The translations under genes were made by a program, and so were the position numbers. The notes beneath the pieces are model-generated. The model was not told where the DNA came from and ran no database searches. It worked only from the letters and a program-made list of their open reading frames with translations. DNA of 43,658 nt from Bacteroidales bacterium (GTDB taxonomy: Bacteria; Bacteroidota; Bacteroidia; Bacteroidales; UBA932): NCBI GenBank assembly GCA_024398075.1, contig JAKSJM010000020.1, positions 1 through 43,658 on the forward strand, written 5' to 3'. This document shows, one piece after another, positions 5,152 to 41,280 of the stretch (positions are counted from its first letter, which is position 1; the number at the start of each line of letters is the position of its first letter).

Positions 5152-5706
5152 ATGTCTAGCTATGATATCATATCCAGAATCAAGTCGGGAGACAGAGATG
5201 CATTTGACATCCTGTGCAGGGAGAGGTATGCCTCGATGATATCGTACGCAAGACTTTTTCTCAAGGGCGATTGGGCTGAGGATGTAGTCCAGGATGTCCT
5301 GTTCGGAGTTTGGCAGCGTCGTGAGACTCTGGATGAGGAGCAGAATCTCCAGGGTTATCTCATCCGTTCCATCTATAATCGTTGCATGAACTATCTGGCA
5401 GATGAGAAGCGCTCGAAGCAGTATGCCAGCTACTATCAGCGTAAGGTGGCTTCTCTCATGGCTTCCTACTATTCTCCCGACAATAATCCTACTATCCTCG
5501 GACTGTACAATGCAGACCTTCGACAGAAGCTCGAAAAGGCCATTGAAAGCCTTACACCTCGCTGTCGTGAAGTGTTCACACTCAGTTATATAGAGCATCT
5601 CTCCGAGAGGGAGATCAGCGAGAGGCTCGGTCTGTCACTCAGTACAGTGGAGAACCACATGTATCTGGCTCTGAAGCAGCTCAGACTTTCTTTGACAAAT
5701 ATTTGA
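5152..5706 (+). CDS. RNA polymerase ECF-type sigma-70 factor
   Basis: A 184-residue extracytoplasmic-function sigma factor. Region 2 spans about residues 15-80 (DAFDILCRERYASMISYARLF, then AEDVVQDVLFGVW). Region 4 spans about 127-180 (LTPRCREVFTLSYIEHLSER and the helix-turn-helix ISERLGLSLSTVENHM). Such factors in Bacteroidales pair with a FecR anti-sigma and switch on a neighbouring susC/susD locus; both partners follow here. The ATG at 5152 was chosen because region 2 begins right after it. The upstream ATG at 5080 would place a terminator and promoter inside the gene and add a Cys/Phe-rich tail unlike the family. The first gene's promoter is of housekeeping type, so basal expression need not depend on the sigma factor itself. 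Confidence 0.93.
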   Translation: MSSYDIISRIKSGDRDAFDILCRERYASMISYARLFLKGDWAEDVVQDVLFGVWQRRETLDEEQNLQGYLIRSIYNRCMNYLADEKRSKQYASYYQRKVASLMASYYSPDNNPTILGLYNADLRQKLEKAIESLTPRCREVFTLSYIEHLSEREISERLGLSLSTVENHMYLALKQLRLSLTNI

Positions 5707-5712
5707 TTTTTC

Positions 5713-5746
5713 TTTGGGTACTTTAGGCGGCTTGCTTGTATATTTA
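5713..5746 (+). promoter_or_regulatory. candidate promoter before fecR (weak)
   Basis: TTTG (5713-5716) and TATATTTA (5739-5746, 7 of 8 to TAnnTTTG) are separated by 22 bases, slightly long for the consensus. The predicted start lies about 14 bases before the fecR ATG at 5766. It could also be where the ECF factor acts, since the next gap (fecR-susC) is only 18 bases. Confidence 0.3.
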
Positions 5747-5765
5747 GCACTAACTGCCACTAAAG

Positions 5766-6767
5766 ATGACCGATTTCGATCTGACCATTTTACAGGATTT
5801 TCTTTCAGGTACTGCTTCTGAAGAGCAGGAAAGACTTGTGTGTGAATGGCTTGAGTCTTCTGAGGAGAACCGTAGGTTCTTCGCGGAGTTCACTACAAAT
5901 ACCACTCTGCACGAGACAGTCGTGAATCCTGATTTCGACGAGCACAGAGAAGATATGCTCGTCCGTCTCAACTCACGCATTGATGCGAGCGAAAGGGAAA
6001 GCGCTCGTCATTCATTCTCCTTTGCGAGCGCGGCTGCAGGCTTCTTGGCCGCCATGGCGGTGGCTGCAGTGGTCGCTCTGTGCGTAATCCTGCCACGTCA
6101 AACGCCGGTGCAGGTGGATAAGGTTGAACCAGCAGTGTTTATGCATAGCTACGCAAATACTTCGGCTTCGGTTAAATCTGTGCTTCTGGCAGATGGCACG
6201 AAGATTTTCCTGAAACCAGGTTCGGAGCTCGAGTACAATGTGACCGGCTACGACGACAAGAGAGAGGTGGTGCTTCGTGGAGAGGGCTACTTCGATGTCG
6301 CCAAGGATAGCCTCAGACCAATGTTTGTCCATACAGAAAACCTTTCGCTCAAGGTCCTCGGCACCGCATTTTCTGTGAAGACAAATTTCATGGACGAAAA
6401 GGTGGAAGTGGTGCTGGAGCGCGGCTCCGTACGCCTTCTTTCTCCAGAAGGCACAGGACTGGTGCGACTTAGCCCGAACCAGATGGCGAGCTACGATCCT
6501 TCCACAGGCGACCTTACTCTCGAGACTCTCAGGGCTGTGCCATTCATCATCGAGCAGTTCAACCTTGAGTCTTTGGACAATGTGACTGTATCCCAGATCA
6601 TCCGTCATCTGGAGCATATATATGGCGTGCGCATAGAGTCGCATATCAAGCATCCCGAGACGCGCTACTACTTCAACTTCCTCAAGACCGACACCATAGA
6701 CGAGGTCCTGAACATCGTAGAGCGCCTTACCGGCGAGAAATGCAAATTATCCACTAATACATATTAA
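5766..6767 (+). CDS. FecR-family anti-sigma factor
   Basis: The 333-residue protein has an N-terminal cytoplasmic sigma-binding region (1-85), one membrane helix at about 88-110 and a periplasmic FecR domain. The FecR domain shows LADGTKIFLKPGSELEY near 141-157 and REVVLRGEGYFDVA near 166-179. The C-terminal part (about 265-333, ending in NIVERLTGEKCKLS) matches the DUF4974-type domain of Bacteroidetes FecR proteins. It should hold the ECF factor (5152-5706) inactive until the STN domain of the adjacent SusC signals ligand. The gene sits 59 bases after the sigma gene and 18 bases before susC, so FecR and SusC are almost certainly on one transcript. Confidence 0.93.
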   Translation: MTDFDLTILQDFLSGTASEEQERLVCEWLESSEENRRFFAEFTTNTTLHETVVNPDFDEHREDMLVRLNSRIDASERESARHSFSFASAAAGFLAAMAVAAVVALCVILPRQTPVQVDKVEPAVFMHSYANTSASVKSVLLADGTKIFLKPGSELEYNVTGYDDKREVVLRGEGYFDVAKDSLRPMFVHTENLSLKVLGTAFSVKTNFMDEKVEVVLERGSVRLLSPEGTGLVRLSPNQMASYDPSTGDLTLETLRAVPFIIEQFNLESLDNVTVSQIIRHLEHIYGVRIESHIKHPETRYYFNFLKTDTIDEVLNIVERLTGEKCKLSTNTY

Positions 6768-6785
6768 TAACAAAACAGTAAAAGT

Positions 6786-9700
6786 ATGACTAAGAAACTC
6801 ATTCTTCGTCTAAGTGTCGCTGTGACGATGTTCCTGTCAATGGTGGGAATAGCGTCAGCGCAGCGTAGCTATGACGTGGATTTGACAATGTCCTCTGCGA
6901 CAGTCAAGTCTTTTACCGATGCGTTGACCAGCCAGACTGGCGTGGCATTCTCATTTGAGTCGTCACTTGCCACAAAGGCATTGGGTAGCGTATCAGTACA
7001 CGAGAAAGGCGCCTCAATGGCGAAGATTCTCGATCAGGTGCTTGCCCCTAAGGGTATAGCATACAATGTAGCTGGCAGTACTTACGTACTCAGCTTGAAG
7101 AAGTCAGGCCCTGTCACCATCAAGGGTAAGGTGTCTGATGGAAATGGCGATCCTCTTCCTGGCGCCGGCGTACTTATCAAGGGTACCACCAAGGGAACCG
7201 TGACAGATATGGATGGTCGTTACGACATCGTTGCAGATGCCTCTCAGACCCTCGTATTCTCATACATTGGCTTCAAGGACAAGGAAGTCCTCGTGGGCTC
7301 GCAGAGCGTGATCGACGTTGCCCTGCGCGATGACCAGAACCTTCTCGACGACGTTGTGGTCGTGGGTTATGGTACACAGTCCAGAAAGACCCTTACCACC
7401 GCCATCGCGAAGGTGGACGGCGACAAGATCATGGACGCACCTGTATCTACAGTCGGTGATGCATTGAAGGGAAAGGTGACCGGTCTTCACATTGTCTCAA
7501 ACAACAACCTTCCTGGTGAGGCTCCTAAGTTCCTCATCCGTGGTGGTTCTTCCATCAACAGAAGTAACTCTCCTCTCTGCCTCGTGGATGGCGTGGAGCG
7601 TTCTTTCGAGGACCTCAACCCAAATGATATCGAGAGCATCGAAGTCCTGAAGGACGCCGCATCAGCAGCCATCTATGGTAGCCGTGCATCAAATGGTGTA
7701 ATCCTCGTCACCACAAGAAAGGGTAACCAGTTCAAGGGCCCTCAGATCGTGTTTGACGCACAGATGGGTTACAATGCTCCTGCACGCACATGGAGACTTG
7801 CAAATGCCACTGAGTACCTCAGCGTGGTTCGTCCTGCTGCATTCCAGGGTCCAAACGCATCCCTCGTGCTTTCAGGTGGAAACGGTGCAGGTGTGGGTAA
7901 TACCTCTCCTACATCAGTTTACTCTACCCGCTATCTCGAGGACGGCGAGGCTGTCCCTGCAGGCTACCTCTCAATGGCAGACCCTATCGACGCATCGAAG
8001 ACCATCATCTATACCGACAGAGACTGGCAGAAGGAGTGGTATGCACCTGCTTTCTACCATAAGGAGTATGTAGGTATCAACGGAGGAAACAAGGAGATGA
8101 AGTATGCTGCATCCATCGGTACCATCCAGGACATGGGTATGGTCGCAATGAGTGGATACAAGAACTTCACCATGCACGGTAACACAAGCTTCAAGATTAC
8201 GAAGAACCTCGAGGCTTCTACCACTTTCGACTTCACCAAGAACCTCAAGAACCCTCTGACCAGCAACTATTTCAATGCTCTCGGTCGAGGTCTCATGATG
8301 TCTCCTACCCACATCGGCAAGTATCCTGACGGATCATTCGCTACCGGTGGTACAAATGCAAACCAGCAGTCTGCAGAGTTCTACGAGGCATTCTATGACC
8401 GCGAGAACAGCCGTCAGAAATTCATGGGTAACATCGGCCTCAAGTGGAACATCACCGACTGGCTCACTGCAAATGCACAGTATGCTTACTATGACAACTC
8501 ATATCGTGGAAGCTACTATACCCGTGGCCAGGTTATCTCTGATCAGGGCGGTGTGACTGACAACTTCATCTCTGGTACCCGCGCTACAAGTGAGTCTCGT
8601 ACACAGACAGCTCGCCAGAACTTCCAGGCATATCTTTCCATGAACAAGAAGCTCGGCAAGAGCAAGATCGACGGAACCTTGGGTTATGACTACTCATACT
8701 GGTCTTACTATTCACTCTCAGGCTCATCATCAGGAGCTAAGAACGACAAGCTTCCTTATCTCCAGAGCGGTGACAAGGGTGATGTAGTAGCCGGAACAGT
8801 ATCTACATTCGACGCATCGAACGAGGAGTATGATACAGCTCTCATCTCTTACTTCGGCCGTGTAGGCTATAACTATGCTGACCGCTACATCCTTTCAGCT
8901 ACGTTCCGTGCCGATGGTTCTTCACTCTTCGCGAAGGGCAACAAGTGGGGATACTTCCCAAGTGCATCTGCAGCGTGGATCATCAGCGAGGAGCCTTTCT
9001 ACGGCTCACTCAAGGAGAAGATGAACACCCTCAAGGTACGTGCATCATATGGTATGACCGGTAACAATGATATCAGCCGTACCGCACCTCTTGGATCATA
9101 TGGCCTCAGTGACTACGCTGGTTACTCAGTCATCCTTCCTTCGGTCATGCAGAATGCAGGCCTCCGCTGGGAGACCACCACTCAGCTCGACCTCGGACTT
9201 GACATGGGCTTCTACAACGACCGTATCCGCGTGATCCTTGACTACTATAACAAGACTACAGACAACATGATCTTCGCTATCACCCTTCCTGATACTGGCC
9301 AGTTCAGCAGCGTACAGGCAAATGTAGGTAGTGCAAGATTCTATGGTGCTGAGCTTGAGCTCCACACCGTGAACGTCCAGACCAAGGACTTCTCTTGGGA
9401 TACAGATTTCACCTATTCATTCAGCAGAAACAAGGTGCTCTCACTTCCTGAGGACTATGCCTACGAGATCATGGACATGGATGGAAATCCTACAGGCGAG
9501 ATCGGATATCGTATCGGTGGTTACACCACAGCCAACGGCTACCGTTTCGGTGGTACCGCAGTAGGTGAGCCTCTCGGACGTATCTGGGGTTATAAGGTGG
9601 CAGGTGTCCTCCAGAATGACGTGGAGGCTGCAGCTGCTCTCTATGATACCCAGAGCCATGGTTATCGTCGTTCTGACGGCATGTCAATCACAGGTCGTAA

Positions 9701-10358
9701 GGATGCCGGTGACTTCGAGTGGGTGAACAGATATGGTACAGCGAAGACCTCTGACGGAAGGGAGCAGATCGATGCTACAGATATGTTCTGCCTCGGAAAT
9801 GTGGCTCCTCATTCTACCGGTGGTATCTCGAATACCTTCCACATCAAGCGTGTGACCTTCCAGGTTTACATGGACTACGCCCTCGGTCACTCTATCTACA
9901 ACTACATGAAGACCCGTATGGTTCAGAACACTCTCGGTTACTCAAACTCAAACCTTGACATGAACCTCTTCAACCAGACCTGGAGACATCCAGGCGATGA
10001 GTCAAATGTAGCTCGTTTCTTCCCTAATGATGCTGACTACGGTAACCGTAACTACTCACGTGCATCCGACTTCAACGTGGAGAAGGCAAGCTATATCTGT
10101 CTGCGTGACGTTTCTCTCTACTATGACCTTCCTGGCAACTGGATCAAGAGGGCTGGCATGAAGAAGCTCACCGTAGGACTTACCGGCAACACCCTTTACT
10201 ACTTCACAAGGATCAGCGGAGCGATCTCTCCTGAGACCGGTATCGCATCCGATGCAGGTGGTAGCGACATGTATACATCAGTCCAGATGGGTGCATCAAA
10301 CTCTAACATCATGCCTGCTGCCCGCAAGATGATGCTTAACTTGAAGATAACATTCTAA
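6786..10358 (+). CDS. SusC/RagA-family TonB-dependent outer-membrane transporter with STN domain
   Basis: The 1190-residue protein has a signal peptide (about 1-25, cleavage after ASA). A secretin/STN signalling domain follows (about 28-105), then a carboxypeptidase-regulatory-like beta-sandwich (about 110-190, KGKVSDGNGDPLPGAGVLIK). Next come the SusC signature DDVVVVGYGTQ and plug (about 195-320, with RGGSSINRSNSPLCLVDGVE), and a 22-strand-type barrel ending in LNLKITF. It imports ligand captured by the SusD partner using TonB energy. The STN domain is the hallmark of SusC proteins wired to FecR/ECF pairs. Codon bias is strong, suggesting high expression. The ligand is not determinable from the barrel; the neighbouring phosphodiesterase-type lipoproteins suggest a phosphodiester-containing compound. 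Confidence 0.95.
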   Translation: MTKKLILRLSVAVTMFLSMVGIASAQRSYDVDLTMSSATVKSFTDALTSQTGVAFSFESSLATKALGSVSVHEKGASMAKILDQVLAPKGIAYNVAGSTYVLSLKKSGPVTIKGKVSDGNGDPLPGAGVLIKGTTKGTVTDMDGRYDIVADASQTLVFSYIGFKDKEVLVGSQSVIDVALRDDQNLLDDVVVVGYGTQSRKTLTTAIAKVDGDKIMDAPVSTVGDALKGKVTGLHIVSNNNLPGEAPKFLIRGGSSINRSNSPLCLVDGVERSFEDLNPNDIESIEVLKDAASAAIYGSRASNGVILVTTRKGNQFKGPQIVFDAQMGYNAPARTWRLANATEYLSVVRPAAFQGPNASLVLSGGNGAGVGNTSPTSVYSTRYLEDGEAVPAGYLSMADPIDASKTIIYTDRDWQKEWYAPAFYHKEYVGINGGNKEMKYAASIGTIQDMGMVAMSGYKNFTMHGNTSFKITKNLEASTTFDFTKNLKNPLTSNYFNALGRGLMMSPTHIGKYPDGSFATGGTNANQQSAEFYEAFYDRENSRQKFMGNIGLKWNITDWLTANAQYAYYDNSYRGSYYTRGQVISDQGGVTDNFISGTRATSESRTQTARQNFQAYLSMNKKLGKSKIDGTLGYDYSYWSYYSLSGSSSGAKNDKLPYLQSGDKGDVVAGTVSTFDASNEEYDTALISYFGRVGYNYADRYILSATFRADGSSLFAKGNKWGYFPSASAAWIISEEPFYGSLKEKMNTLKVRASYGMTGNNDISRTAPLGSYGLSDYAGYSVILPSVMQNAGLRWETTTQLDLGLDMGFYNDRIRVILDYYNKTTDNMIFAITLPDTGQFSSVQANVGSARFYGAELELHTVNVQTKDFSWDTDFTYSFSRNKVLSLPEDYAYEIMDMDGNPTGEIGYRIGGYTTANGYRFGGTAVGEPLGRIWGYKVAGVLQNDVEAAAALYDTQSHGYRRSDGMSITGRKDAGDFEWVNRYGTAKTSDGREQIDATDMFCLGNVAPHSTGGISNTFHIKRVTFQVYMDYALGHSIYNYMKTRMVQNTLGYSNSNLDMNLFNQTWRHPGDESNVARFFPNDADYGNRNYSRASDFNVEKASYICLRDVSLYYDLPGNWIKRAGMKKLTVGLTGNTLYYFTRISGAISPETGIASDAGGSDMYTSVQMGASNSNIMPAARKMMLNLKITF

Positions 10359-10371
10359 GGAGGACATGCAT

Positions 10372-11889
10372 ATGAAAAGATATATTTTAAACCTTCTTTT
10401 GATCTGTGCCGGTGCTCTTTCTTTGAGCTCTTGCCACAAGGATCTCGATATCGTATACGGAATGACCTTGAACTCCACCAACATGTGGAAGGATCCTTCA
10501 GACCTTGAGCAGTCAGTTCCTGGTATCTATCTCCGTCTTCGCAATTATTTCTCGGCAAACGAGTGTAATGTCTTCTATCTTGGTGAGATCCGCGTAGGTG
10601 ACTCCATGTGGGGCCCATCTCTCGAGTCAAAGGTAGCCGACAACTTCAAGATCGCTTGCCGTCACAGCACTCTCAACGGTGCTCAGACCATCGGTTGGTC
10701 TGGCCTTTACTCGGCCATTGACCAGGCAAATGCAGTCATCAAGTACGCAGACCAGTGCCGCGCATCTCAGTCTATTGTGGACTGGGCTCTTGCTCAGGCA
10801 TATTTCGCACGTGCTTATTCATACTTCTGGGCAGGTAGGACCTGGGGTTATTGTCCTATCAACCTCCTCCCTGTGGAGTCTACCACCCAGCCAGAGTGCT
10901 ACCCAGAGCAGCACACACCAGCTGAGGTCTACGCTCAGGTAGAGAGCGACATCGCTGAGTGCGAGAAGCTCGCCGCATCACTCGGAACCAGCAAGTACAT
11001 GGCTACAGCAGACGCTCTCATGATGCTCAAGGCAGAGTATGCTCTCTGGATGTACACCACCCAGAACGGCGGTAGCTCATACCTTTCTATGGCAGAAAGC
11101 GCTCTTGATGCCATCGGCATCTCTTCAGCCAAGCTCCTTTCAAACTACGCTGACGTATTCAGCCGCACAAACAAGGTGAACAGTGAGGTGATCTTTGCTC
11201 TCAACAACAATGCTACCTCGAAGGCTGGTTACCAGTTGTATTTCTGCCATCCTGCAAACCTCATTGCTGCTGCATACCAGAACAAGAACGGTGGCCCAGT
11301 GCCTATCAACTCTACCCAGTGGTGGGCGTATCCACAGTCTTTCGTGGATTACCTCAAGGCATCTGAGAAGGCTGGTGACACCCGCGTAGCCACAAACCTT
11401 GGCTATGGCCCTTATTCTTCAGCTACCGACAAGCACGAGATCACTTGGTGCAACAAGTTCCTTGGTGACATGTCCAAGGCGCCTGTAGTCCTTGACAATG
11501 ACCTCTTCTACTATCGTTACGGCCAGGCTGTGATGATGTATGCAGAGCTCAAGTACTACCAGAAGGACTATGCTGGAGCAAACAAGGCTCTCAATATCAT
11601 TGCAAAGAGAGCTTATGGCGTAGACTCAAAGTACACCAGCACAAACGCTGCAGATGTTTATGATGCCCTTATCAACGAGTACAAGCTCGAGTTCCCTGCA
11701 GAAGGCGTGATTTGGTTTGCACTCATCCGTACAGGCGCTATCTGGAGCATGGCTCCTAACAGCGAGCAGCCAGACGTCACTTTCGAGGCTCTTAAGGCAA
11801 AGAACCCTAATATCCTCCTTTGGCCTATCGCTAATGGTTCTATCAACAAGAACCCTGAGCACATCCATCAGGTAGAAGGTTGGTCTTAA
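10372..11889 (+). CDS. SusD/RagB-family nutrient-binding lipoprotein
   Basis: About 505 residues from the ATG at 10372 (an ATG two codons earlier, at 10366, is equally in frame). A lipoprotein signal with LSLSSC gives a lipidated Cys at about residue 21. The helical, TPR-like RagB/SusD fold is indicated by ANAVIKYADQ, AQAYFARAYSYFWAGRTWGY and a C-terminal segment ending EHIHQVEGWS. SusD proteins sit as a lid on SusC at the cell surface and bind the ligand. An AGGAGG-like sequence lies just before the start, which is rare in this window. It follows susC by 13 bases in the same operon. Confidence 0.94.
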   Translation: MKRYILNLLLICAGALSLSSCHKDLDIVYGMTLNSTNMWKDPSDLEQSVPGIYLRLRNYFSANECNVFYLGEIRVGDSMWGPSLESKVADNFKIACRHSTLNGAQTIGWSGLYSAIDQANAVIKYADQCRASQSIVDWALAQAYFARAYSYFWAGRTWGYCPINLLPVESTTQPECYPEQHTPAEVYAQVESDIAECEKLAASLGTSKYMATADALMMLKAEYALWMYTTQNGGSSYLSMAESALDAIGISSAKLLSNYADVFSRTNKVNSEVIFALNNNATSKAGYQLYFCHPANLIAAAYQNKNGGPVPINSTQWWAYPQSFVDYLKASEKAGDTRVATNLGYGPYSSATDKHEITWCNKFLGDMSKAPVVLDNDLFYYRYGQAVMMYAELKYYQKDYAGANKALNIIAKRAYGVDSKYTSTNAADVYDALINEYKLEFPAEGVIWFALIRTGAIWSMAPNSEQPDVTFEALKAKNPNILLWPIANGSINKNPEHIHQVEGWS

Positions 11890-11901
11890 TAGAAATGAAG
11901 T

Positions 11902-12339
11902 ATGAAAAAGATATTATCATCACTTATTATCGCCGCTTCACTCGTGTTCACCCTCACTTCTTGTGAGAAGGTAGAGATGGGTGGCGCCGATCTGAAGACT
12001 CTTAGTCTCTCATACGACTTGGATGGAAACACCCTTCCTACTATCCCATCAGAGGGTCAGGTCATCACCAAGGCCGTGGTCATCAACCAGGGCGGTGTGA
12101 ACCGCGACGTAGAGTGGGAGGTGTCAGTGGACAATGCCCCTTCATGGGTCAAGGTAGAGAAGACCACCGTTCAGAACCATTTCAATGGTACTTACGGCGG
12201 TGACGACTGCGACATCACCCTCAAGGGTGTCACCATCACCGTGGATGCAAATGATTCTGGTGCCAAGCGCTCAGCGGTCATCCGCTATACTGTAGCTGAC
12301 GGCAGCTCGATCTCCACTATGCTCACTCAGTCCAAGTAA
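11902..12339 (+). CDS. small BACON-like surface lipoprotein
   Basis: The 145-residue protein has a lipoprotein signal (MKKILSSLIIAASLVFTLTS followed by Cys21). One beta-sandwich domain of BACON type follows, recognisable from WEVSVDNAPSWVKVEK, then DCDITLKGVTITVDANDSGAKRSAVIRYT and the closing LTQSK. BACON domains are common in Bacteroidota surface proteins and are thought to bind carbohydrate or mucin, or to act as spacers. It lies 12 bases after susD and 2 bases before the GDPD gene. This is the position where SusCD loci usually encode an accessory surface glycan-binding protein (SusE/F-like), so an auxiliary ligand-binding role is a reasonable inference. Confidence 0.8.
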   Translation: MKKILSSLIIAASLVFTLTSCEKVEMGGADLKTLSLSYDLDGNTLPTIPSEGQVITKAVVINQGGVNRDVEWEVSVDNAPSWVKVEKTTVQNHFNGTYGGDDCDITLKGVTITVDANDSGAKRSAVIRYTVADGSSISTMLTQSK

Positions 12340-12341
12340 TT

Positions 12342-13256
12342 ATGAGAAGGACAGTAAAATCCATAACCATGCTGCTTGCAGTGGCGCTTCTCGGCGCCGC
12401 TGGATGCGGCAAGGAGCCAGTGATCCCACCTCCACCAACCCCAAACGGTGAGACTGGAGAGGAGACGGTGACCCTGGAGGAGCCGGAGCCATGCTCAAAC
12501 AAGATTGTCGCCCATCGTGGCGGATCTTCAGAGTGCGGCGCTCCGGACAACTCCATCGCTTCGCTCAAGTACGCGATGTCATTGAAACTGTATGGCTCTG
12601 AGTGCGATATTTATTGGACTAAGGACAATAATGTCGTCGTTGCGCATGCGACCAGCGACTACAAGATCAACGGCCTCATCCCATGGGAGCACTCCCTTAA
12701 GGAGATCCAGGCTGCGGGACGCCTCTCGAATGGCGAGATGATCCCTTCGCTGGAGGATTACCTGAAGACCGTCATGGTCAGCGGCAGCTGCACACGCCTT
12801 TGGCTTGATATCAAGGCGACCAGCCCTGCCGACTATGCTGTGAAGGCAGTCCAGCGCGCCTGCGAGATCATCAAGGAGAAGAAGGCGCAGAAGTTCTGCG
12901 AGTTCATCTGCACCAGCAATGCCACTACGGCAAGGGCTGCGGCAGCCTGCATGACCGCCTACGGTATCCCTGTAGGCTGGATGTCAAACTCGGCACCTTC
13001 AAACCATATCGCGGCAGGTTTCACATGGGCAAACCTTTCTGCGAAGAGCGCGATGACTCCGTATGGCTCTCATAGCATTGACGAATTCACCAGGGCAGGT
13101 ATGGAAATCAGTGTGTTCAATGTGGACAAGGCAGGTAGTTCAGATGGCAATGCAGTCACATCCGACAGCGATGTGGACTACTATATCAAGAACTATTCGT
13201 CCATGAAGGCTATCTGTACAAACTACCCAAACTGGCTTAAATCAAAACTTAAATAA
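12342..13256 (+). CDS. glycerophosphodiester phosphodiesterase-family lipoprotein
   Basis: The 304-residue protein has lipobox LGAAGC (Cys22), a Pro-rich linker (28-50), then a GDPD TIM-barrel domain. Visible active-site elements are HRG (58-60), ECDIYWTKD (87-95) and the second histidine in VVVAH (102). At two positions where the family normally has Glu this protein has Asp: PDN instead of PEN (69) and LDIK instead of a Glu-containing motif (156). Family members hydrolyse glycerophosphodiesters to glycerol 3-phosphate and an alcohol; some cleave teichoic acids or sphingolipids. The signal places it outside the cytoplasm, probably on the surface next to SusCD. It is one of two phosphoester-cleaving enzymes in the locus. 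Confidence 0.88.
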   Translation: MRRTVKSITMLLAVALLGAAGCGKEPVIPPPPTPNGETGEETVTLEEPEPCSNKIVAHRGGSSECGAPDNSIASLKYAMSLKLYGSECDIYWTKDNNVVVAHATSDYKINGLIPWEHSLKEIQAAGRLSNGEMIPSLEDYLKTVMVSGSCTRLWLDIKATSPADYAVKAVQRACEIIKEKKAQKFCEFICTSNATTARAAAACMTAYGIPVGWMSNSAPSNHIAAGFTWANLSAKSAMTPYGSHSIDEFTRAGMEISVFNVDKAGSSDGNAVTSDSDVDYYIKNYSSMKAICTNYPNWLKSKLK

Positions 13257-13268
13257 TAAACAGGTATC

Positions 13269-16200
13269 ATGAAATTAAGAAACATAGTAATGACGGCATT
13301 CTCAGCGTTCGCACTCGTTTCGTGTGTGACCAATGAGCTCGTGCCTTCACAGTCTGCTCCAGCAGTGGCTTTCGTAACCAAGACTGCTGGTGATGCCCAG
13401 GTGGAAATCTCCCGCAGAGGTGAGACCAAGCAGGTGGGCATCAAGGCTACATGCGACTGGACACTCACCACTGACAGTGACTGGGTGAAGATCAGTCCTA
13501 TGTCAGGTACTGAGGCTACCAAGGACATCACTGTCACTGTGGACTCTGAGAACAATGCTGACGATGACCGCACTGCAAAGGTCATCATCTTCAAGGCTTC
13601 TGACTCACTTCCTTGTGACACCCTCTTCGTTATCCAGAAGGGTGCTGCAGGTGAGTTCGACGGCAGAATCAAGAGCGCTGAGGCTTTCGTCTCATTCATC
13701 GCTCAGGCAGGTGAGCTCGTAGAGACTGACGAGGTTGAGCTCATGGCCGATATCGATCTCGCAGGCGCAGTCATCGCCCCTGTCGACAAATTCTCTGCTA
13801 TCTTCAACGGTAACAATCACAAGATCTACAACTTCACCATCGCTTCTGAGAAGGCTGAGGCTGGTATGTTCCTCGCAAACTATGGTACTATCCGTGACCT
13901 CATCGTTGGTTCAAAGGATGGCCAGAGCTGGGATGGTTCTTCAAAGATCAGCTTCGCAGATGGCATGACCGGTAACAGCGCAGGTATCGTGGCTGTGAAC
14001 TACGGTACTGTGGAGAATGTCAAGAACTTCGCTTCTGTAGACTTCAACGCAGCGAATGCTTCTGACGCTGATTCTTCAGTCGGTGGTATCGTAGGTCTCG
14101 TTGGTTCTGTATCATCAGTCATCAAGAACTGTGAGAACTACGGAACCATCACTTACACCGGTGCACAGAACTACCGTTCATCAATGGGTGGTGTGCTCGG
14201 TCTCAGCGGCCAGTCTGGCGCTGTCATCGAGAACTGTCTCAATGCGGGTGCTATCGTGAAGGCTACCGCAAACCAGAAGGAGTTCGCAATGGCTGGTGTA
14301 GTAGGTCGTGCAAATGACCAGCTCATCATCAAGAACTGTACAAACGAGGGCCCTGTATCTTATGAGTCTACAGAGAAGCCAGGTTCTTATATCCACATCG
14401 CCGGTATCATCGGTGCTGCATACAAGAACTCACAGATCTCTGGCTCAAGGAACAAGGGTGAGGTTACCTCAGTCATCAACCAGGTTAACCGTATCGGTGG
14501 TATCGCTGGTACCATGAACACCGGTGGTGTGATCGAGGACTGTATCAATGACGGTGCAGTGAGCGTAAAGCAGGCTGCAAACGCAAACTGGCAGGCTGCT
14601 GCAGGTATCTGTGGATTCGAGGAGAAGGCTACTTCTACTATTCCATTCATCATCAGAAACTGTACTAACAACGCTGCTGTATCTCTCGAACTCGAAAATA
14701 CTACGACCCATGCAAACAAGGCATCTGTGGGTGGTATCATCGGTCTCGCTTGCTCGGTAGTAGAGTTCACAGGAAACACAAACAACGGTAAGATCTCAGC
14801 CAAGAACACTGGTGGTACCCCTGTTTATGCCGGCGGTATCATTGGTAACAACAGCAAGGGTACCATGACACTTACTGGTAATACAAATACCGGTGCTGTC
14901 TCATTTGAGGCTGCAGATGGTACTGCAGGCGGTGTCATTGGCTTCGCTCAGGCTGCTGGTGCTGTCATCAAGGAGAATATTGACAGAGGAAATGTAAGTG
15001 GCTCAGTGGCTTCTGCAATCGGTGCGGTAGCTGGTATCACCGCTGCATCTCTCAACTCTTGTGCTGTGGGTTCAGACGTGACCGTTGGTGGTCAGACCGT
15101 GACCATGGCGAACCTCGCAGCCCTCATCCAGGGCTCAGCCAGCACAGGCGCACCTGTAGCTTGCTACGTAGAGGGTGCCGCTCCTGTAGATTACCTCTCA
15201 GCTGCTCCTGCAGAGCTTGCATTTGTCGCTGCTGGTGAGGCTAAGACCATCACAGTGTCCTCGAACTGCGAGTGGACCGCTACCTCTTCTGAAAGCTGGC
15301 TCACTCTCTCTGAGACCGCTGGCAATGGTGAGGCTACCATCACAGTGACCGCTGCCGAGAACCCTGCAAAGCAGGAGCGTACGGCAGTCATTACCATTGT
15401 CGCAAAGAACGACGCTACACTCAGCGCTACAGTGAATGTAAAGCAGGCTGAGAAGCCAGGCGCACTCCCTGGAAACCAGATCAAGAGCGCCGCTGACCTC
15501 AAGACCTTCCTCACCATCGCAGCTGAGGCTGAGGCTGGTGAGACCTTCACCATCGAGAGCGACATCGACTACACTTCAGAGACTCTCGTCCCTGCAGATG
15601 CATTCGCCGGTGTGCTTGATGGAAAGAACCACAAGATCACCTTCGCTACCGAGGCTGATGCGGCGTTCATCGCACTCATCAAGACCCTTACCGGTACAGT
15701 GAAGAACATCACTACCGCTGGTTCGCTCAAGTCTACATACTCAGGTACCGGTGAGCACTTTGTCACCTCTATCGCTGCCTATGTGGACGGTGGTCTCGTT
15801 GAGAACTGTACAAATGAGGCAGCTATCACACTCGCTTCTACCGGTACAGGCTCGTATGCATACCTTTCAGGTGTCGTTTCACATTTCAGACTCGACGGCG
15901 CTACAGTGAAGAACTGTACAAACAAGGGCAAGCTCACCCTGAGCAACGCCTGCCAGACCATCCTCGGTGGTGTCGCTGCATATGGTGTGACCAACGCCAA
16001 TGCACCTACCCTGAGCCTGATCGACTGCGTGAACTCTGGTGATATCGAGATCAACCACGAGGGTGCGAACTGGGACTATATCGGTGGTGTAGTAGGTAAG
16101 ATGGGTGCTTCTTCAAACCCATTCACCATGTTCTACATCAAGAACTGCAAGTTCAGTGGAAAGATGACTGTCACCAAGGCTCCAAAGATCCGTGGTGGTG

Positions 16201-16700
16201 GCGTATTCGGCTCATGCGGTGCATCTACCGACTACGAGGTGTCTGGCTGTGAGTTCTCAGGAACCATTGACATTACTGATACCCAGGCAGTTGATCGCCT
16301 CTTCGGTGGCGTAGGCCCAGGCTTCTCTGAGACAGCAGCTTCAGGTACCATCTCTAACTGCGTATTCAATGGCGACATCAAGGCTGTCACAGGTGGCAAC
16401 CTCTATCTCGGAGGTATCTTCGGAAACAATGGTGCCGCTACCATCGTCATCGATGGCTGTAAGGCTACAGCGAAGTCTTCTATCGGCGGATATAGCTCGG
16501 CTAAGTCTATCGGTGTTATCGCAGCTCGTCCAAACAAGGCTGGCTTCACAGTGAAGAACTGTAAGGTGGCTGGTAAGGTTACATCTGCAGCAGGTGAGGA
16601 GATCACCATCTCTGCTGACAATGTAGCTGATTGGATGTTCAAGGGTTCTGCCACTACAGTAGCTGTAACTCTCGAGAACAATGGCTTTAATGCAGAGTAA
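13269..16700 (+). CDS. large BACON and GLUG-like repeat surface lipoprotein
   Basis: The 1143-residue protein has a lipoprotein signal (Cys19 after FALVS). It is built from two similar halves. Each half starts with a BACON domain (about 33-127, CDWTLTTDSDWVKISP; about 640-730, CEWTATSSESWLTLSE). An IKSA...F segment follows (from 134 and from 738) with a D/GNNHKI or D/GKNHKI turn, then many glycine-rich repeats of roughly 30-50 residues. These repeats follow the pattern GG(I/V)(I/V)G...I.NC.N.G.(I/V), resembling GLUG-type repeats that form a beta-solenoid. I see no catalytic motif. A role as a surface-exposed binder, adhesin or scaffold for the locus's ligand is inferred. It is the last gene before a strong terminator. 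Confidence 0.85.
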   Translation: MKLRNIVMTAFSAFALVSCVTNELVPSQSAPAVAFVTKTAGDAQVEISRRGETKQVGIKATCDWTLTTDSDWVKISPMSGTEATKDITVTVDSENNADDDRTAKVIIFKASDSLPCDTLFVIQKGAAGEFDGRIKSAEAFVSFIAQAGELVETDEVELMADIDLAGAVIAPVDKFSAIFNGNNHKIYNFTIASEKAEAGMFLANYGTIRDLIVGSKDGQSWDGSSKISFADGMTGNSAGIVAVNYGTVENVKNFASVDFNAANASDADSSVGGIVGLVGSVSSVIKNCENYGTITYTGAQNYRSSMGGVLGLSGQSGAVIENCLNAGAIVKATANQKEFAMAGVVGRANDQLIIKNCTNEGPVSYESTEKPGSYIHIAGIIGAAYKNSQISGSRNKGEVTSVINQVNRIGGIAGTMNTGGVIEDCINDGAVSVKQAANANWQAAAGICGFEEKATSTIPFIIRNCTNNAAVSLELENTTTHANKASVGGIIGLACSVVEFTGNTNNGKISAKNTGGTPVYAGGIIGNNSKGTMTLTGNTNTGAVSFEAADGTAGGVIGFAQAAGAVIKENIDRGNVSGSVASAIGAVAGITAASLNSCAVGSDVTVGGQTVTMANLAALIQGSASTGAPVACYVEGAAPVDYLSAAPAELAFVAAGEAKTITVSSNCEWTATSSESWLTLSETAGNGEATITVTAAENPAKQERTAVITIVAKNDATLSATVNVKQAEKPGALPGNQIKSAADLKTFLTIAAEAEAGETFTIESDIDYTSETLVPADAFAGVLDGKNHKITFATEADAAFIALIKTLTGTVKNITTAGSLKSTYSGTGEHFVTSIAAYVDGGLVENCTNEAAITLASTGTGSYAYLSGVVSHFRLDGATVKNCTNKGKLTLSNACQTILGGVAAYGVTNANAPTLSLIDCVNSGDIEINHEGANWDYIGGVVGKMGASSNPFTMFYIKNCKFSGKMTVTKAPKIRGGGVFGSCGASTDYEVSGCEFSGTIDITDTQAVDRLFGGVGPGFSETAASGTISNCVFNGDIKAVTGGNLYLGGIFGNNGAATIVIDGCKATAKSSIGGYSSAKSIGVIAARPNKAGFTVKNCKVAGKVTSAAGEEITISADNVADWMFKGSATTVAVTLENNGFNAE

Positions 16701-16721
16701 ATCTGTAAAATATATATGGAG

Positions 16722-16746
16722 GGCCGGTAGAAATACCGGCCTTTTT
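16722..16746 (+). terminator. intrinsic terminator after the BACON/GLUG gene
   Basis: GGCCGGTA (16722-16729) and TACCGGCC (16734-16741) form a perfect 8-bp stem with a GAAA tetraloop, followed by TTTTT. It ends the fecR-to-GLUG transcript. The downstream EEP gene therefore depends on read-through or on its own promoter. Confidence 0.9.
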
Positions 16747-16761
16747 CATATCTTTATGACT

Positions 16762-18510
16762 ATGAAACGACGTGTCCTTACATTGGTGGTCCTGGGAGCA
16801 TTGGTGGCTTGTACAAGAAACGAGCTACCCAAGCCTCCTGTGCATGAAGTTGAGGAGGAAGAGGAGAGCGGCGCCGTCCTCTTTTCTGCCACTTTTGATG
16901 AATGTGTACTGAAGGAAGGACCTCAGATTCAGTCAGATAACTTCAAGGATGATTGTGAAAATCCTCTCAGCCACATTTCCTTCAAGTCCACGCAGTGGAA
17001 GACTGTCGGTTCTTCACATGTGTGTGAAGATGAGTACATGAGGAGCAGGGGATTCCAGGACTGGGTATATCTTTTCCGGGTATCTGAACGTCCAGGGTAT
17101 CTTGCATGTGGCGTGAACTCCGATGGCAAGAGGGGCATCATACAGTCTCCGATGATGTCGAAGATCCATCAAGTGTCAGATGTGAAAGTCAGTTTCCAGG
17201 TTAAACCCGACGACGCGATGTCGGACGACATCTGCTTCAAGGTCTGCCTCAGCGGAGTCATAAGCAAGGCTACCGTAAACGGCTATGCCTATAGCCTTAC
17301 GGATCCCCATGACGGTATAGAGCATTCGCTGACCATATCCCGTCAGTCGTTGAGTCCTGGGTGGAACAAGGTCGTTGTAGAGGTGGAGAAGGCGACAAAT
17401 GGCACCATGTTCTACTGGGCAGGCGCATCGTCCGCCAAGACCCTGAATCATGGCTTTTATCTGGACAATGTAAAAGTCTACGAAACTCAGCAGATGTCGC
17501 GCCCGCAGAAGTCTCTGCGTGTGCTCTACTGGAACATTCAGAACGGCATGTGGAGTGATCAGGCCAATGATTTCGCTCGCTTCAGGGACTTTGTGAAAAA
17601 ATACGACCCTGATGTATGCGTGTGGTGCGAAGCGCAGTCTATCTACAAGGATAGAAGCACTTCTATGTGCGGCGAGAACGAGAGATTTTTCCCTGCAGGA
17701 TGGCAGAATTTTGCATTAAGCTATGGACATGCGTACACTGCTATCGGTGGATATAGAATCTATGCAGATGATTATTATCCTCAGGTCGTGACTTCAAAGT
17801 ATCCTATCAGGACTCTTGAGACTATCACGGAGACAGATTATGAGCATCAGAGGCTTGCCGACTCATTCACTGACGGGAAAAGCCATTCTGAGGAGTACCA
17901 CGCACATTGTGCCGAAGGCTACTGCCCTGTGGCTCATGGCGCCGCCGTGCAGCAGCTGGATGTGGATGGCGTGAAGGTGAACATCGTCACGCTGCATCTG
18001 TGGCCTCACGCGTATAGCTACTACGCCAAGTTTGTACTGAAAGACCAGAAGTATGACGCGGACAATAGCGCAGGAGGAAATGTGCAGAGGGAGAAAGAGA
18101 TAAGGTATATCTGCTCGAAAAGCGTTGAGGACCCTCGTTTCGCGGGAGAGGAGAATTGGCTTATGATGGGTGACTTCAACACCCGTAGCCGTCTGGACAA
18201 CTGGAGATACAAGCTTGCAGATGACAGCCCGTTCCTTAGCAGTCACGACTACATCCTCGACCATACATTCTATAAGGATATCATTGGCCTGAAATATCCG
18301 GGACAGTTTTTCGCTACACGCACGTGGGCAAATGACGCCGCGGGAAACTATCCTCCGCGATATGACTTCGTGTACGCTTCGCCGGCGATGTATGATAAGG
18401 TGGCCAATGCTCTGGTACTCAATGAGGAATGGACAAACATGGTGTGGGCAATGTCAAACTACTACGACTCATCTGACCACAGGCCTATACTCGTCGACTT
18501 CAAATTGTGA
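16762..18510 (+). CDS. endonuclease/exonuclease/phosphatase-family lipoprotein
   Basis: The 582-residue protein starts MKRRVLTLVVLGALVAC, with lipidated Cys17. An acidic linker (30-36) and an N-terminal beta-sandwich of about 210 residues (38-242) precede a C-terminal EEP (DNase I/sphingomyelinase-like) domain from 251. Catalytic motifs are intact: WNIQN (257-261), Glu290 in CEAQ, LHLWPH (411-416), GDFN (470-473) and SDHRP (571-575). EEP enzymes cleave phosphodiesters in nucleic acids, phospholipids or inositol phosphates, or phosphomonoesters, so the substrate is open. An in-frame ATG at 16681 is rejected because it overlaps the previous gene and the terminator. The sequence TATCTTTA (16749-16756), five bases before the ATG, resembles a -7 box, but no -33 box is present. 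Confidence 0.88.
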   Translation: MKRRVLTLVVLGALVACTRNELPKPPVHEVEEEEESGAVLFSATFDECVLKEGPQIQSDNFKDDCENPLSHISFKSTQWKTVGSSHVCEDEYMRSRGFQDWVYLFRVSERPGYLACGVNSDGKRGIIQSPMMSKIHQVSDVKVSFQVKPDDAMSDDICFKVCLSGVISKATVNGYAYSLTDPHDGIEHSLTISRQSLSPGWNKVVVEVEKATNGTMFYWAGASSAKTLNHGFYLDNVKVYETQQMSRPQKSLRVLYWNIQNGMWSDQANDFARFRDFVKKYDPDVCVWCEAQSIYKDRSTSMCGENERFFPAGWQNFALSYGHAYTAIGGYRIYADDYYPQVVTSKYPIRTLETITETDYEHQRLADSFTDGKSHSEEYHAHCAEGYCPVAHGAAVQQLDVDGVKVNIVTLHLWPHAYSYYAKFVLKDQKYDADNSAGGNVQREKEIRYICSKSVEDPRFAGEENWLMMGDFNTRSRLDNWRYKLADDSPFLSSHDYILDHTFYKDIIGLKYPGQFFATRTWANDAAGNYPPRYDFVYASPAMYDKVANALVLNEEWTNMVWAMSNYYDSSDHRPILVDFKL

Positions 18511-18591: not shown

Positions 18592-19131
18592 ATGTCACTT
18601 AATAAAGTAATGCTGATCGGTAACGTTGGTAGAGACCCAGAAGTACGTTACCTCGAAGGACAGGGCGCCCAGGGCGCCACTAAGGTAGCCACATTCACTC
18701 TTGCGACCACTGAGAGATTCAAGGATCGCGCAGGAGAGTTGAGAGAAAACACAGAATGGCATAACATCGTAGCGTGGAGAAATTCCGCAGATGTAGCTGA
18801 GAAGTATATCCGCAAGGGTACTCAGCTTTACGTCGAAGGCAAGCTCCGTACACGTTCATGGACTGATGCCTCAGGAGTGAAGAAGTTCACCACAGAGATA
18901 GTTGTGGATACTCTTCAGCTCCTTGGTAAGAAGGAGGACAACCCAGGAGTGGGTGCAGCGCCTATTGCTTCGGCGCCAGCGGCTCCTGCCGCACCTCGCC
19001 AGGCAGCTCCAGCTGCTGCTCCTAGCTATTCGCAGCCAGCCGGTTTCCAGCCTCGTCAGGCTCCAGCCACTGCTCCTGCAGCCGCACCAGCCGCAGCTAT
19101 GGATGATGCAGGTGACGACCTCCCATTCTAG
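18592..19131 (+). CDS. ssb: single-stranded DNA-binding protein
   Basis: The 179-residue Ssb coats single-stranded DNA during replication, recombination and repair. The N-terminal OB fold (about 1-110) begins MSLNKVMLIGNVGRDPEVRY and contains EWHNIVAWRNSADVAEKYIRKG. An Ala/Pro-rich flexible linker (about 120-170) follows. The acidic tip DDLPF is the canonical docking peptide for RecJ, RecO, PriA and other partners; recJ lies 3.6 kb downstream. The ATG is preceded by an AT-rich leader (TTTTTATATT) shared with the MFS gene start, and no Shine-Dalgarno is present. It is probably monocistronic, ending at the palindromic terminator at 19154. Confidence 0.97.
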   Translation: MSLNKVMLIGNVGRDPEVRYLEGQGAQGATKVATFTLATTERFKDRAGELRENTEWHNIVAWRNSADVAEKYIRKGTQLYVEGKLRTRSWTDASGVKKFTTEIVVDTLQLLGKKEDNPGVGAAPIASAPAAPAAPRQAAPAAAPSYSQPAGFQPRQAPATAPAAAPAAAMDDAGDDLPF

Positions 19132-41276: not shown

Positions 41277-41280
41277 CCAT

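What the first reader, a model, noticed from the sequence alone, without database searches (positions are those of the whole stretch)
5152..18510. SusCD uptake locus centred on phosphoester-cleaving enzymes instead of glycosidases
The sequence shows ECF sigma, FecR, STN-SusC, SusD, a BACON lipoprotein, a GDPD-family lipoprotein, a BACON/GLUG-like lipoprotein and an EEP-family lipoprotein with intact catalytic motifs. No glycoside hydrolase, polysaccharide lyase, sulfatase or protease is present. By analogy with known Sus loci, ligands are cut at the surface and imported through SusC. The inferred target is therefore a phosphodiester-rich compound such as glycerophosphodiesters, phospholipid head groups, teichoic-type polymers, inositol phosphodiesters or nucleic acid. 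I cannot choose between these from sequence.
Basis: partly seen in the sequence, partly recalled or inferred. Interest (0 to 1): 0.7.

Follow-up and report, generated by a model that had tools for sequence, protein, structure and literature searches.

The report
Probable glycerol-phosphate diester uptake locus
A gut bacterium carries a nutrient-uptake gene set of the kind normally used for sugars, but armed with enzymes of phosphate-bond-cutting families; relatives often place it beside a glycerol-phosphate-type importer, so it probably feeds on glycerol-phosphate compounds, which remains to be tested.

Summary
In detail: window 5152-18510 encodes ECF sigma, FecR, SusC, SusD, a BACON lipoprotein, a GDPD lipoprotein, a large BACON lipoprotein and an EEP lipoprotein; none of the eight matches a glycoside hydrolase, lyase, sulfatase or protease. 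Key GDPD and EEP residues are invariant among relatives. Of 45 related loci, 34 keep SusC/SusD with the GDPD; the EEP was found in 7 of 34, so it is accessory. In 14 of the 27 loci with at least 3 kb downstream a GlpT-like antiporter lies within 5 kb; a few have a glycerol-1-phosphate-dehydrogenase-like gene or a second GDPD, and 11 of 27 have none of these. The window's own genome keeps GlpT-GDPD on another contig. In genus relatives the flanking mfs and ssb genes are neighbours without the locus, so it is a discrete accessory unit. Best reading: a substrate-induced SusCD system for glycerophosphodiesters or poly(glycerol phosphate). The EEP substrate is unknown. Flavobacterium "PusCD" loci are the published precedent: a new variant of a known kind.

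The parts
5152..5706 (+). ECF sigma-70 factor (Bacteroidetes family TIGR02985)
5766..6767 (+). FecR anti-sigma factor
   Evidence: FecR 1e-12, FecR_C 5.5e-8
6786..10358 (+). SusC TonB-dependent transporter with N-terminal STN-like signalling extension
   Evidence: in relatives 22 of 22 long SusC have fecR directly upstream, 0 of 7 short ones do
10366..11889 (+). SusD lipoprotein; closest solved SusD by sequence is NanU (4l7t, E 4e-23)
11902..12339 (+). small BACON-domain lipoprotein, probable surface binding protein
12342..13256 (+). GDPD-family lipoprotein; H58, R59, E87, D89, H102 invariant in 25 of 25 aligned sequences
13269..16700 (+). large BACON lipoprotein related to GLUG-type proteins; in 7 other loci a relative is fused to a GDPD domain
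16762..18510 (+). EEP-family lipoprotein with an extra N-terminal region; N258, E290, H412, D471, N473, D535, D572, H573 invariant in 8 of 8 sequences (accessory: found in 7 of 34 core loci)
3632..5056 (+). MFS transporter; left boundary marker, not part of the locus
18592..19131 (+). ssb; right boundary marker, not part of the locus (named from its sequence; no family scan)

Best explanation
It is an accessory, substrate-induced SusCD uptake locus for glycerol-phosphate diesters: deacylated phospholipid head groups such as glycerophosphoglycerol, or poly(glycerol phosphate) chains. Proposed working: surface lipoproteins (SusD, the two BACON proteins) bind the ligand; the GDPD lipoprotein cuts phosphodiester bonds and, in this version, the EEP lipoprotein makes a second kind of cut; SusC takes fragments across the outer membrane and, through its STN domain, signals to FecR and the sigma factor to raise expression; glycerol phosphate crosses the inner membrane by a GlpT-type antiporter and enters glycolysis after oxidation by a glycerol-phosphate dehydrogenase. 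Shown here: gene content, conserved catalytic residues, conserved order, repeated neighbourhood with GlpT-like, G1PDH-like and second GDPD genes in part of the relatives, mfs-ssb adjacency without the locus in relatives, and the SusC-length/FecR correlation. Inferred: surface location, substrate, direction of flow, induction.
For: GDPD and EEP families with conserved catalytic residues. 34 of 45 related loci keep SusC/D with GDPD. A GlpT-like OPA antiporter lies within 5 kb downstream in 14 of 27 loci with at least 3 kb held, in 12 of the 27 on the same strand within 2 kb, 8 of those 12 at 31-147 bp behind the core. The representative scanned (L020) has E. coli GlpT 1pw4 as best solved relative (6e-59), with the R, K, H, R residues that bind phosphate in GlpT (recalled) aligned. 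G1PDH-like gene 98-131 bp behind the core in L007, L024, L040 and in the same stretch in G013. Of 8 genus genomes with this SusC (own included), 5 have GlpT 4.9-7.4 kb behind SusC, just past the space of susD-gdpd-bac2, and one 14.6 kb behind; own and G344 do not. These genomes may overlap with those. Own genome has GlpT-GDPD on contig C47. A GDPD, G1PDH-like, GlpT-like and HAD gene run with a DeoR-type regulator exists in another family; no SusCD was detected in the 15 kb held. GlpT adjacency needs at least 8 changes on the SusD tree (gains and losses not told apart). In 7 loci GDPD is fused to a relative of the large lipoprotein.
Against: In the window itself GlpT and G1PDH are not linked to the locus. 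11 of the 27 informative loci, the closest relative L001 among them, have neither GlpT nor G1PDH nor second GDPD within 5 kb. The GDPD match is modest (9e-7) and its third acidic ligand seems to be D (LDIK) rather than E. The antiporter scores below NCBIfam's cut-offs and better to PgtP's subfamily (307 bits) than to GlpT (263 bits), and the G1PDH-like protein is far below its cut-off (145 against 413 bits), so other organophosphates are possible. Enzyme I, mannitol PTS and MtlD genes (12, 9 and 7 of the 34 core loci) share the neighbourhood and are not explained by glycerol phosphate. One paper shows a GDPD gene beside GH65, GH97 and GH13 genes (PMC9131120, one figure-legend passage), so GDPD also occurs in ordinary sugar loci. 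EEP specificity is unknown; no structure could be predicted.
Confidence: 0.55

Rival explanations
1. A phosphate-scavenging locus of the PusCD type: the enzymes serve to free phosphate under Pi limitation, with any phosphodiester as substrate.
For: PUS loci combine SusCD with phosphodiesterases or phosphatases and, in part, inner-membrane organic-phosphorus transporters; PUSII has a FecR-like regulator (PMC8115612, passages and section 16). Histidine-type phosphatases lie beside the GlpT-GDPD cluster in the own genome.
Against: None of the eight genes is a phosphomonoesterase by Pfam; own sigma/FecR pair with a signalling SusC. G1PDH-like and MtlD neighbours in some relatives point to use of the carbon skeleton. 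The PUS main text has no mention of PF03009, PF03372 or GlpT. Pho-box sites were not searched for.
Confidence: 0.2
2. A locus for a phosphate-decorated glycan (phosphoglycerol-, phosphocholine- or phosphoethanolamine-substituted): GDPD and EEP strip the decorations and SusC imports the sugar chain.
For: An EEP subfamily removes phosphocholine/phosphoethanolamine from GlcNAc (PMC10704324, abstract and passages). Table rows in PMC4666044 assign GH16 to Sphingobacterium proteins annotated as GDPD (one passage), which probably explains the 'glucanase' name of 7ww4, whose GDPD-like part is residues 6-232. A GDPD gene sits by GH65/GH97/GH13 genes in PMC9131120 (one passage). Glucosamine-6-phosphate-isomerase-like genes lie near L005 and L029.
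Against: No glycoside hydrolase in the locus, and one (opposite strand, L026) among 50 scanned of 86 unassigned flanking ORFs, 16 of the 50 being without any match.
Confidence: 0.15
3. A nucleic-acid uptake locus: the EEP is a nuclease and SusC imports oligonucleotides.
For: EEP superfamily includes nucleases (PMC10704324 passage); L018 has an S1/P1-type nuclease next to the EEP.
Against: EEP was found in 7 of 34 core loci while GDPD is in all 34 by definition of the set; GlpT-like and G1PDH-like neighbours have no obvious role in nucleotide use.
Confidence: 0.06

Closest known systems
Flavobacterium phosphate utilisation systems (PusCD), PMC8115612 (passages and section 16 seen)
   Same: SusCD-like pair with phosphodiesterases or phosphatase instead of CAZymes; proposed targets include lipid head groups and nucleic acids; inner-membrane organic-P transporters co-localise with some; PUSII has a FecR-like regulator
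   Different: PUSI/PUSII enzymes are listed as PF00149, PF16670 and PhoA, not GDPD/EEP; induced by Pi depletion; here GlpT-like, G1PDH-like and MtlD genes are the recurrent neighbours. Induction of the present locus is unknown
Polysaccharide utilisation loci with ECF sigma/FecR regulation (recalled)
   Same: Sigma, FecR, STN-SusC, SusD, surface lipoproteins and enzymes in one direction
   Different: No CAZyme; enzymes of phosphodiester families
GlpQ/GlpT glycerophosphodiester pathway of E. coli (recalled); GlpQ of B. subtilis on teichoic acid (PMC7086022, passages)
   Same: GDPD frees glycerol phosphate; a GlpT-like antiporter is at hand
   Different: Here coupled to SusCD and lipoproteins; GlpQ is specific for sn-glycerol-3-phosphate, whereas G1PDH-like neighbours in a few loci suggest that sn-glycerol-1-phosphate may also arise
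GlcNAc-PDase subfamily of EEP enzymes (PMC10704324, abstract and passages)
   Same: secreted EEP phosphodiesterase of gut bacteria
   Different: mostly clostridial single-domain proteins; membership of the window's EEP in this subfamily not tested

Membership tests
SusCD nutrient-uptake (PUL-type) locus | adjacent susC and susD | tested here: met
SusCD nutrient-uptake (PUL-type) locus | carbohydrate-active enzymes in the locus (required for a PUL in the strict sense) | tested here: not met
   on all eight genes
SusCD nutrient-uptake (PUL-type) locus | SusC STN domain paired with sigma/FecR (one regulatory type) | tested here: met
   STN below cut-off; 22 of 22 long SusC with fecR; 7 of 7 short without
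Phosphate utilisation system (PusCD) | SusCD next to phosphodiesterase or phosphatase | tested here: met
Phosphate utilisation system (PusCD) | induction by phosphate depletion | not testable with these tools
   no expression data
Phosphate utilisation system (PusCD) | orthology to PusCD1/2 | not tested
   sequences of the Flavobacterium genes were not fetched
GDPD family PF03009 | profile match above curated cut-off | tested here: met
   (29.6 bits, cut-off 23.6)
GDPD family PF03009 | two histidines and E-x-D metal ligands (recalled) | tested here: met
   (H58, E87, D89, H102 invariant in 25 of 25)
GDPD family PF03009 | hydrolysis of glycerophosphodiesters | not testable with these tools
   needs enzyme assay
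EEP superfamily PF03372 | profile match above cut-off and catalytic N, E, H, GDFN, D, SDH motifs (recalled) | tested here: met
   (26.6 bits, cut-off 24.5)
EEP superfamily PF03372 | assignment to nuclease, sphingomyelinase or GlcNAc-PDase subfamily | tested here: inconclusive
OPA antiporter (GlpT type), neighbour gene in relatives | close homology to GlpT with phosphate-binding residues | tested here: met
   on one representative (L020)
OPA antiporter (GlpT type), neighbour gene in relatives | NCBIfam glpT equivalog cut-off | tested here: not met
   (262.6 against 632.55 bits; also below the cut-offs of PgtP and UhpT models)
Glycerol-1-phosphate dehydrogenase, neighbour gene in relatives | NCBIfam equivalog cut-off | tested here: not met
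   (144.8 against 413 bits); best solved relative is a G1PDH, 9h4x, 3.7e-28

The most novel reading that the evidence does not exclude
The locus and its kin are a polyol-phosphate polymer utilisation system: herbivore-gut Bacteroidales forage on teichoic-acid-like poly(glycerol phosphate), possibly with hexitol phosphate, from Gram-positive neighbours (or on glycerol-1-phosphate lipids of archaea). They cut the polymer at the surface with GDPD and other phosphodiesterases, import the pieces by SusCD, and burn the resulting polyol phosphates through GlpT, G1PDH and MtlD.
Probability: 0.2. Interest if true: 0.8.

Novelty: new variant of a known kind. Interest (0 to 1): 0.5.

Why it matters
SusCD systems are read almost automatically as carbohydrate importers. 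A conserved family of SusCD loci whose constant enzyme is a GDPD, and about half of which sit near a GlpT-like gene, would extend these systems to glycerol-phosphate nutrients in herbivore guts, where membrane lipids and Gram-positive walls are plentiful. It makes a clear prediction (growth on glycerophosphoglycerol or teichoic acid) and would help to name other CAZyme-free SusCD loci.

Tried and rejected
Considered and set aside. (1) MFS and DcuC genes upstream as part of the locus: rejected. Own genome excluded, 35 of 60 sampled genus genomes gave an mfs hit (E<=1e-100) and 32 of these also an ssb hit (E<=1e-35); in 21 the two share a contig, in 20 of those they are about 16-1573 bp apart and in G333 2741 bp, with no room for the locus; in 11 they lie on different contigs (counted by eye). 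Orientation of the pair varies, so the site is not simply colinear. (2) GDPD fold as a glucanase because of 7ww4: set aside; the match covers residues 6-232 of 480 and GH16 is reported in proteins annotated as GDPD. (3) EEP as core enzyme: rejected by distribution, though 7 of the 34 loci have under 3 kb downstream. (4) EEP relatives outside the locus as a clue: the profile matched 4 of 295 order genomes including own at E<=1e-30; the other three are 40-41% alike by blastp and no GDPD of this family was detected in the 19, 6.9 and 8.4 kb held. (5) Viral contigs and plasmids: no EEP match. (6) Literature: PMC full-text searches listed no described SusCD-GDPD-GlpT locus. Searches found 0 papers, 22 found 2, 54 found 11; some searches listed only the best 15 of 494, 379 and 540. 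Subscription papers are not in that library, so absence from print is not shown. Searches asked other things. (7) Independent-pairs tests had too few pairs to reach significance (4 pairs for STN/FecR, p 0.125). (8) GDPD-family matches in the order at large (19 of 295 genomes at E<=1e-25): of the 21 short stretches L074-L094 inspected (under 4 kb each), one (L090) shows SusC-like genes beside the GDPD.

Full report
What is there. The window (43,658 bp, 51% GC; contig C13 of a 2.49 Mb, 71-contig genome) carries eight collinear genes at 5152-18510: ECF sigma, FecR, SusC, SusD, a 145-aa BACON lipoprotein, a 304-aa GDPD lipoprotein, a 1143-aa BACON lipoprotein and an EEP lipoprotein. Gaps are 2 to 61 bp if the EEP starts at 16762. 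SusD and the four proteins after it begin with a lipobox-like motif; surface exposure is inferred. None of the eight matches a glycoside hydrolase, lyase, sulfatase or protease in Pfam.

The enzymes look intact. In 25 aligned GDPD sequences (the window's, 22 of the 47 listed and two further second copies), including three second-copy GDPDs, H58, R59, E87, D89 and H102 never vary; these correspond to the catalytic histidines and E-x-D metal ligands of GDPD enzymes (recalled). The third acidic ligand appears to be D in LDIK instead of E. The best profile match in the PDB is a glycerophosphodiester phosphodiesterase, 3mz2 (2e-27), followed by 7ww4/7wwc ('beta-1,3(4)-glucanase', GDPD-like half only) and 3no3. 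In eight EEP sequences the N, E, H, GDFN, D and SDH residues never vary. No PDB chain matches the EEP convincingly by sequence or profile, so its subfamily remains open.

The family of loci. One scan of GTDB contigs gave 45 loci, 44 titled as Bacteroidales, Bacteroidia, Rikenellaceae or Alistipes and one as Eubacteriales; many titles name rumen, omasum, cecum or horse feces. Thirty-four hold the GDPD with SusC and/or SusD. The order susC-susD-bac1-gdpd-(bac2) is nearly constant (L030 has bac2 before gdpd). EEP was found in 7 of 34 (L001, L004, L018, L024, L026, L027, L045; in L004 and L024 it lies upstream, in L024 without the N-terminal region). On a SusD tree EEP presence needs at least 3 changes. 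Seven other loci (L031, L033-L037, L044) have a GDPD fused to a relative of the large lipoprotein, with neither SusC nor SusD detected in the stretches held.

Regulation. Of 29 loci where the upstream side is visible, all 22 with a long SusC (1173-1207 aa) have fecR directly upstream and all 7 with a short SusC (1106-1111 aa) do not. The three short ones whose N-termini were printed begin without the STN stretch. So the extension and FecR come and go together, as expected for a trans-envelope relay; only four independent pairs support this on the tree (p 0.125).

The neighbours that suggest the substrate. Of 27 loci with at least 3 kb downstream, 14 have an OPA-type MFS gene within 5 kb, 12 of them on the same strand within 2 kb, 8 of those at 31-147 bp behind the core and 4 at 1459-1580 bp behind one further gene. 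The representative from L020 scores as OPA family in NCBIfam (PgtP subfamily 307 bits, GlpT 263 bits, both below cut-off). Its best PDB match is E. coli GlpT (6e-59), and the residues known to hold phosphate in GlpT (R45, K80, H165, R269; recalled) are aligned identically. L007, L024 and L040 have a gene of a G1PDH-like cluster directly behind the core; the L024 member scores 145 bits against a cut-off of 413 in NCBIfam and has G1PDH 9h4x as best solved relative. L018, L024 and L027 have a second GDPD. L027 adds a GDSL esterase and L018 an S1/P1 nuclease. Eleven of the 27 have none of GlpT, G1PDH or second GDPD within 5 kb. GlpT adjacency needs at least 8 changes on the tree, gains and losses not told apart. 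For scale, the own genome has matches at four OPA-like places in 2.49 Mb, so a chance neighbour within 5 kb would be rare; the loci are related, so no p-value is given.

A second sample, which may share genomes with the first. Five (G013, G023, G027, G341, G342) have GlpT 4.9-7.4 kb behind it and G338 14.6 kb behind; the own genome and G344 do not. In G013 GDPD, MtlD (opposite strand), G1PDH-like and GlpT-like genes lie within 5.0 kb. In another family of the order, G054 has GDPD, G1PDH-like, GlpT-like and HAD hydrolase genes in one run beside a DeoR-type regulator, no SusCD being detected in the 15 kb held: these genes also keep company on their own. In the window's genome such a set sits on contig C47: GlpT-like, GDPD, a PTS enzyme I-like gene, a gene resembling the mannitol PTS at its N-terminus, flanked by histidine-type phosphatases with MtlD nearby; three G1PDH-like genes lie elsewhere.

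Unit and boundaries. Without the own genome, 32 of 60 sampled genus genomes have both an mfs and an ssb hit; in 21 they share a contig and in 20 of these they are about 16-1573 bp apart (2741 bp in G333), too close for the locus, among them G013, G023, G027, G341 and G344, which carry their SusC elsewhere (counted by eye; orientation varies). Sigma-to-EEP is therefore a discrete accessory unit. GDPD matches at E<=1e-20 occur in own plus 3 of 36 same-genus and 1 of 24 other-order genomes.

Carbohydrate enzymes outside the order. Of 86 unassigned ORFs over 140 aa within 5 kb of the 34 cores (seven large clusters were set aside and covered by one representative each), 50 were scanned directly with Pfam. 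One is a glycoside hydrolase, a GH3 on the opposite strand in L026, beyond a SpoIIE-type gene. Sixteen matched nothing. L003 has a protein with CHB_HEX_C/Fn3-associated domains; peptidase-family genes occur in L004 (Mx1, in a second SusCD set) and L019 (M49). The other 36 were covered only through cluster mates or not at all.

Interpretation. The constant enzyme (GDPD) and the recurrent importer and, in a few loci, dehydrogenase (GlpT-like, G1PDH-like) converge on glycerol phosphate. PMC7086022 (passages) reports that lipoteichoic acid is made of sn-glycerol-1-phosphate and wall teichoic acid of sn-glycerol-3-phosphate in B. subtilis, and that phosphatidylglycerol carries a free sn-glycerol-1-phosphoryl end; a G1PDH beside the locus therefore fits phosphatidylglycerol head groups or lipoteichoic acid, but it was seen in only three of the 34 loci. 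Enzyme I, mannitol PTS and MtlD genes accompany 12, 9 and 7 of the 34 core loci and are unexplained; they are the seed of the bolder polyol-phosphate reading.

Known precedent. PMC8115612 (passages and section 16) describes SusCD-like PusCD loci with phosphodiesterases or PhoA, some with inner-membrane organic-phosphorus transporters, induced by phosphate depletion. Same idea, different enzymes and neighbours; whether regulation differs is unknown. The searches of the open library listed no SusCD-GDPD-GlpT locus, but three of the lists were capped at 15 and subscription journals are not covered.

Noticed in passing
window 7001-16500 against L001: susC to bac2 is 93-99.6% identical in 500-bp steps to Horse_feces46 (L001), while both flanks (including sigma, fecR and EEP) are 74-95%: probably a recent exchange of the core cassette between related species.
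   Followed up: partly
L029 12232-20898, minus strand: Facing the core: a second SusC-like and SusD gene, a calcineurin-like phosphoesterase, MtlD, a second GDPD and a GlpT-like gene, i.e. another phosphoesterase-armed SusCD locus.
   Followed up: partly
L031, L033-L037, L044: GDPD domain fused to the C-terminus of a large lipoprotein of about 1140-1160 aa related to the window's bac2; no SusC or SusD detected in the stretches held.
   Followed up: partly
L096 3402-9000: GDPD, G1PDH-like, GlpT-like and HAD hydrolase genes in one run with a divergent DeoR-type regulator in another Bacteroidales family.
   Followed up: partly
L095 3911-15298: In a genome of another family (G316) a GDPD (31% identical) sits beside two oppositely oriented SusC-like sets with SusD-like genes.
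   Followed up: no
L059 (own genome contig C47) and L020 12864-20792: Mannitol PTS, PTS enzyme I and MtlD genes cluster with GlpT-like and GDPD genes in several genus genomes; why they belong together is unexplained.
   Followed up: partly
window 41257-43185: Protein with a calcineurin-like phosphoesterase domain followed by a PQQ-type beta-propeller; no link to the locus was examined.
   Followed up: no
L043: A contig titled Eubacteriales ends in a GDPD fragment about 62% identical to this family; possibly a mis-binned contig.
   Followed up: no
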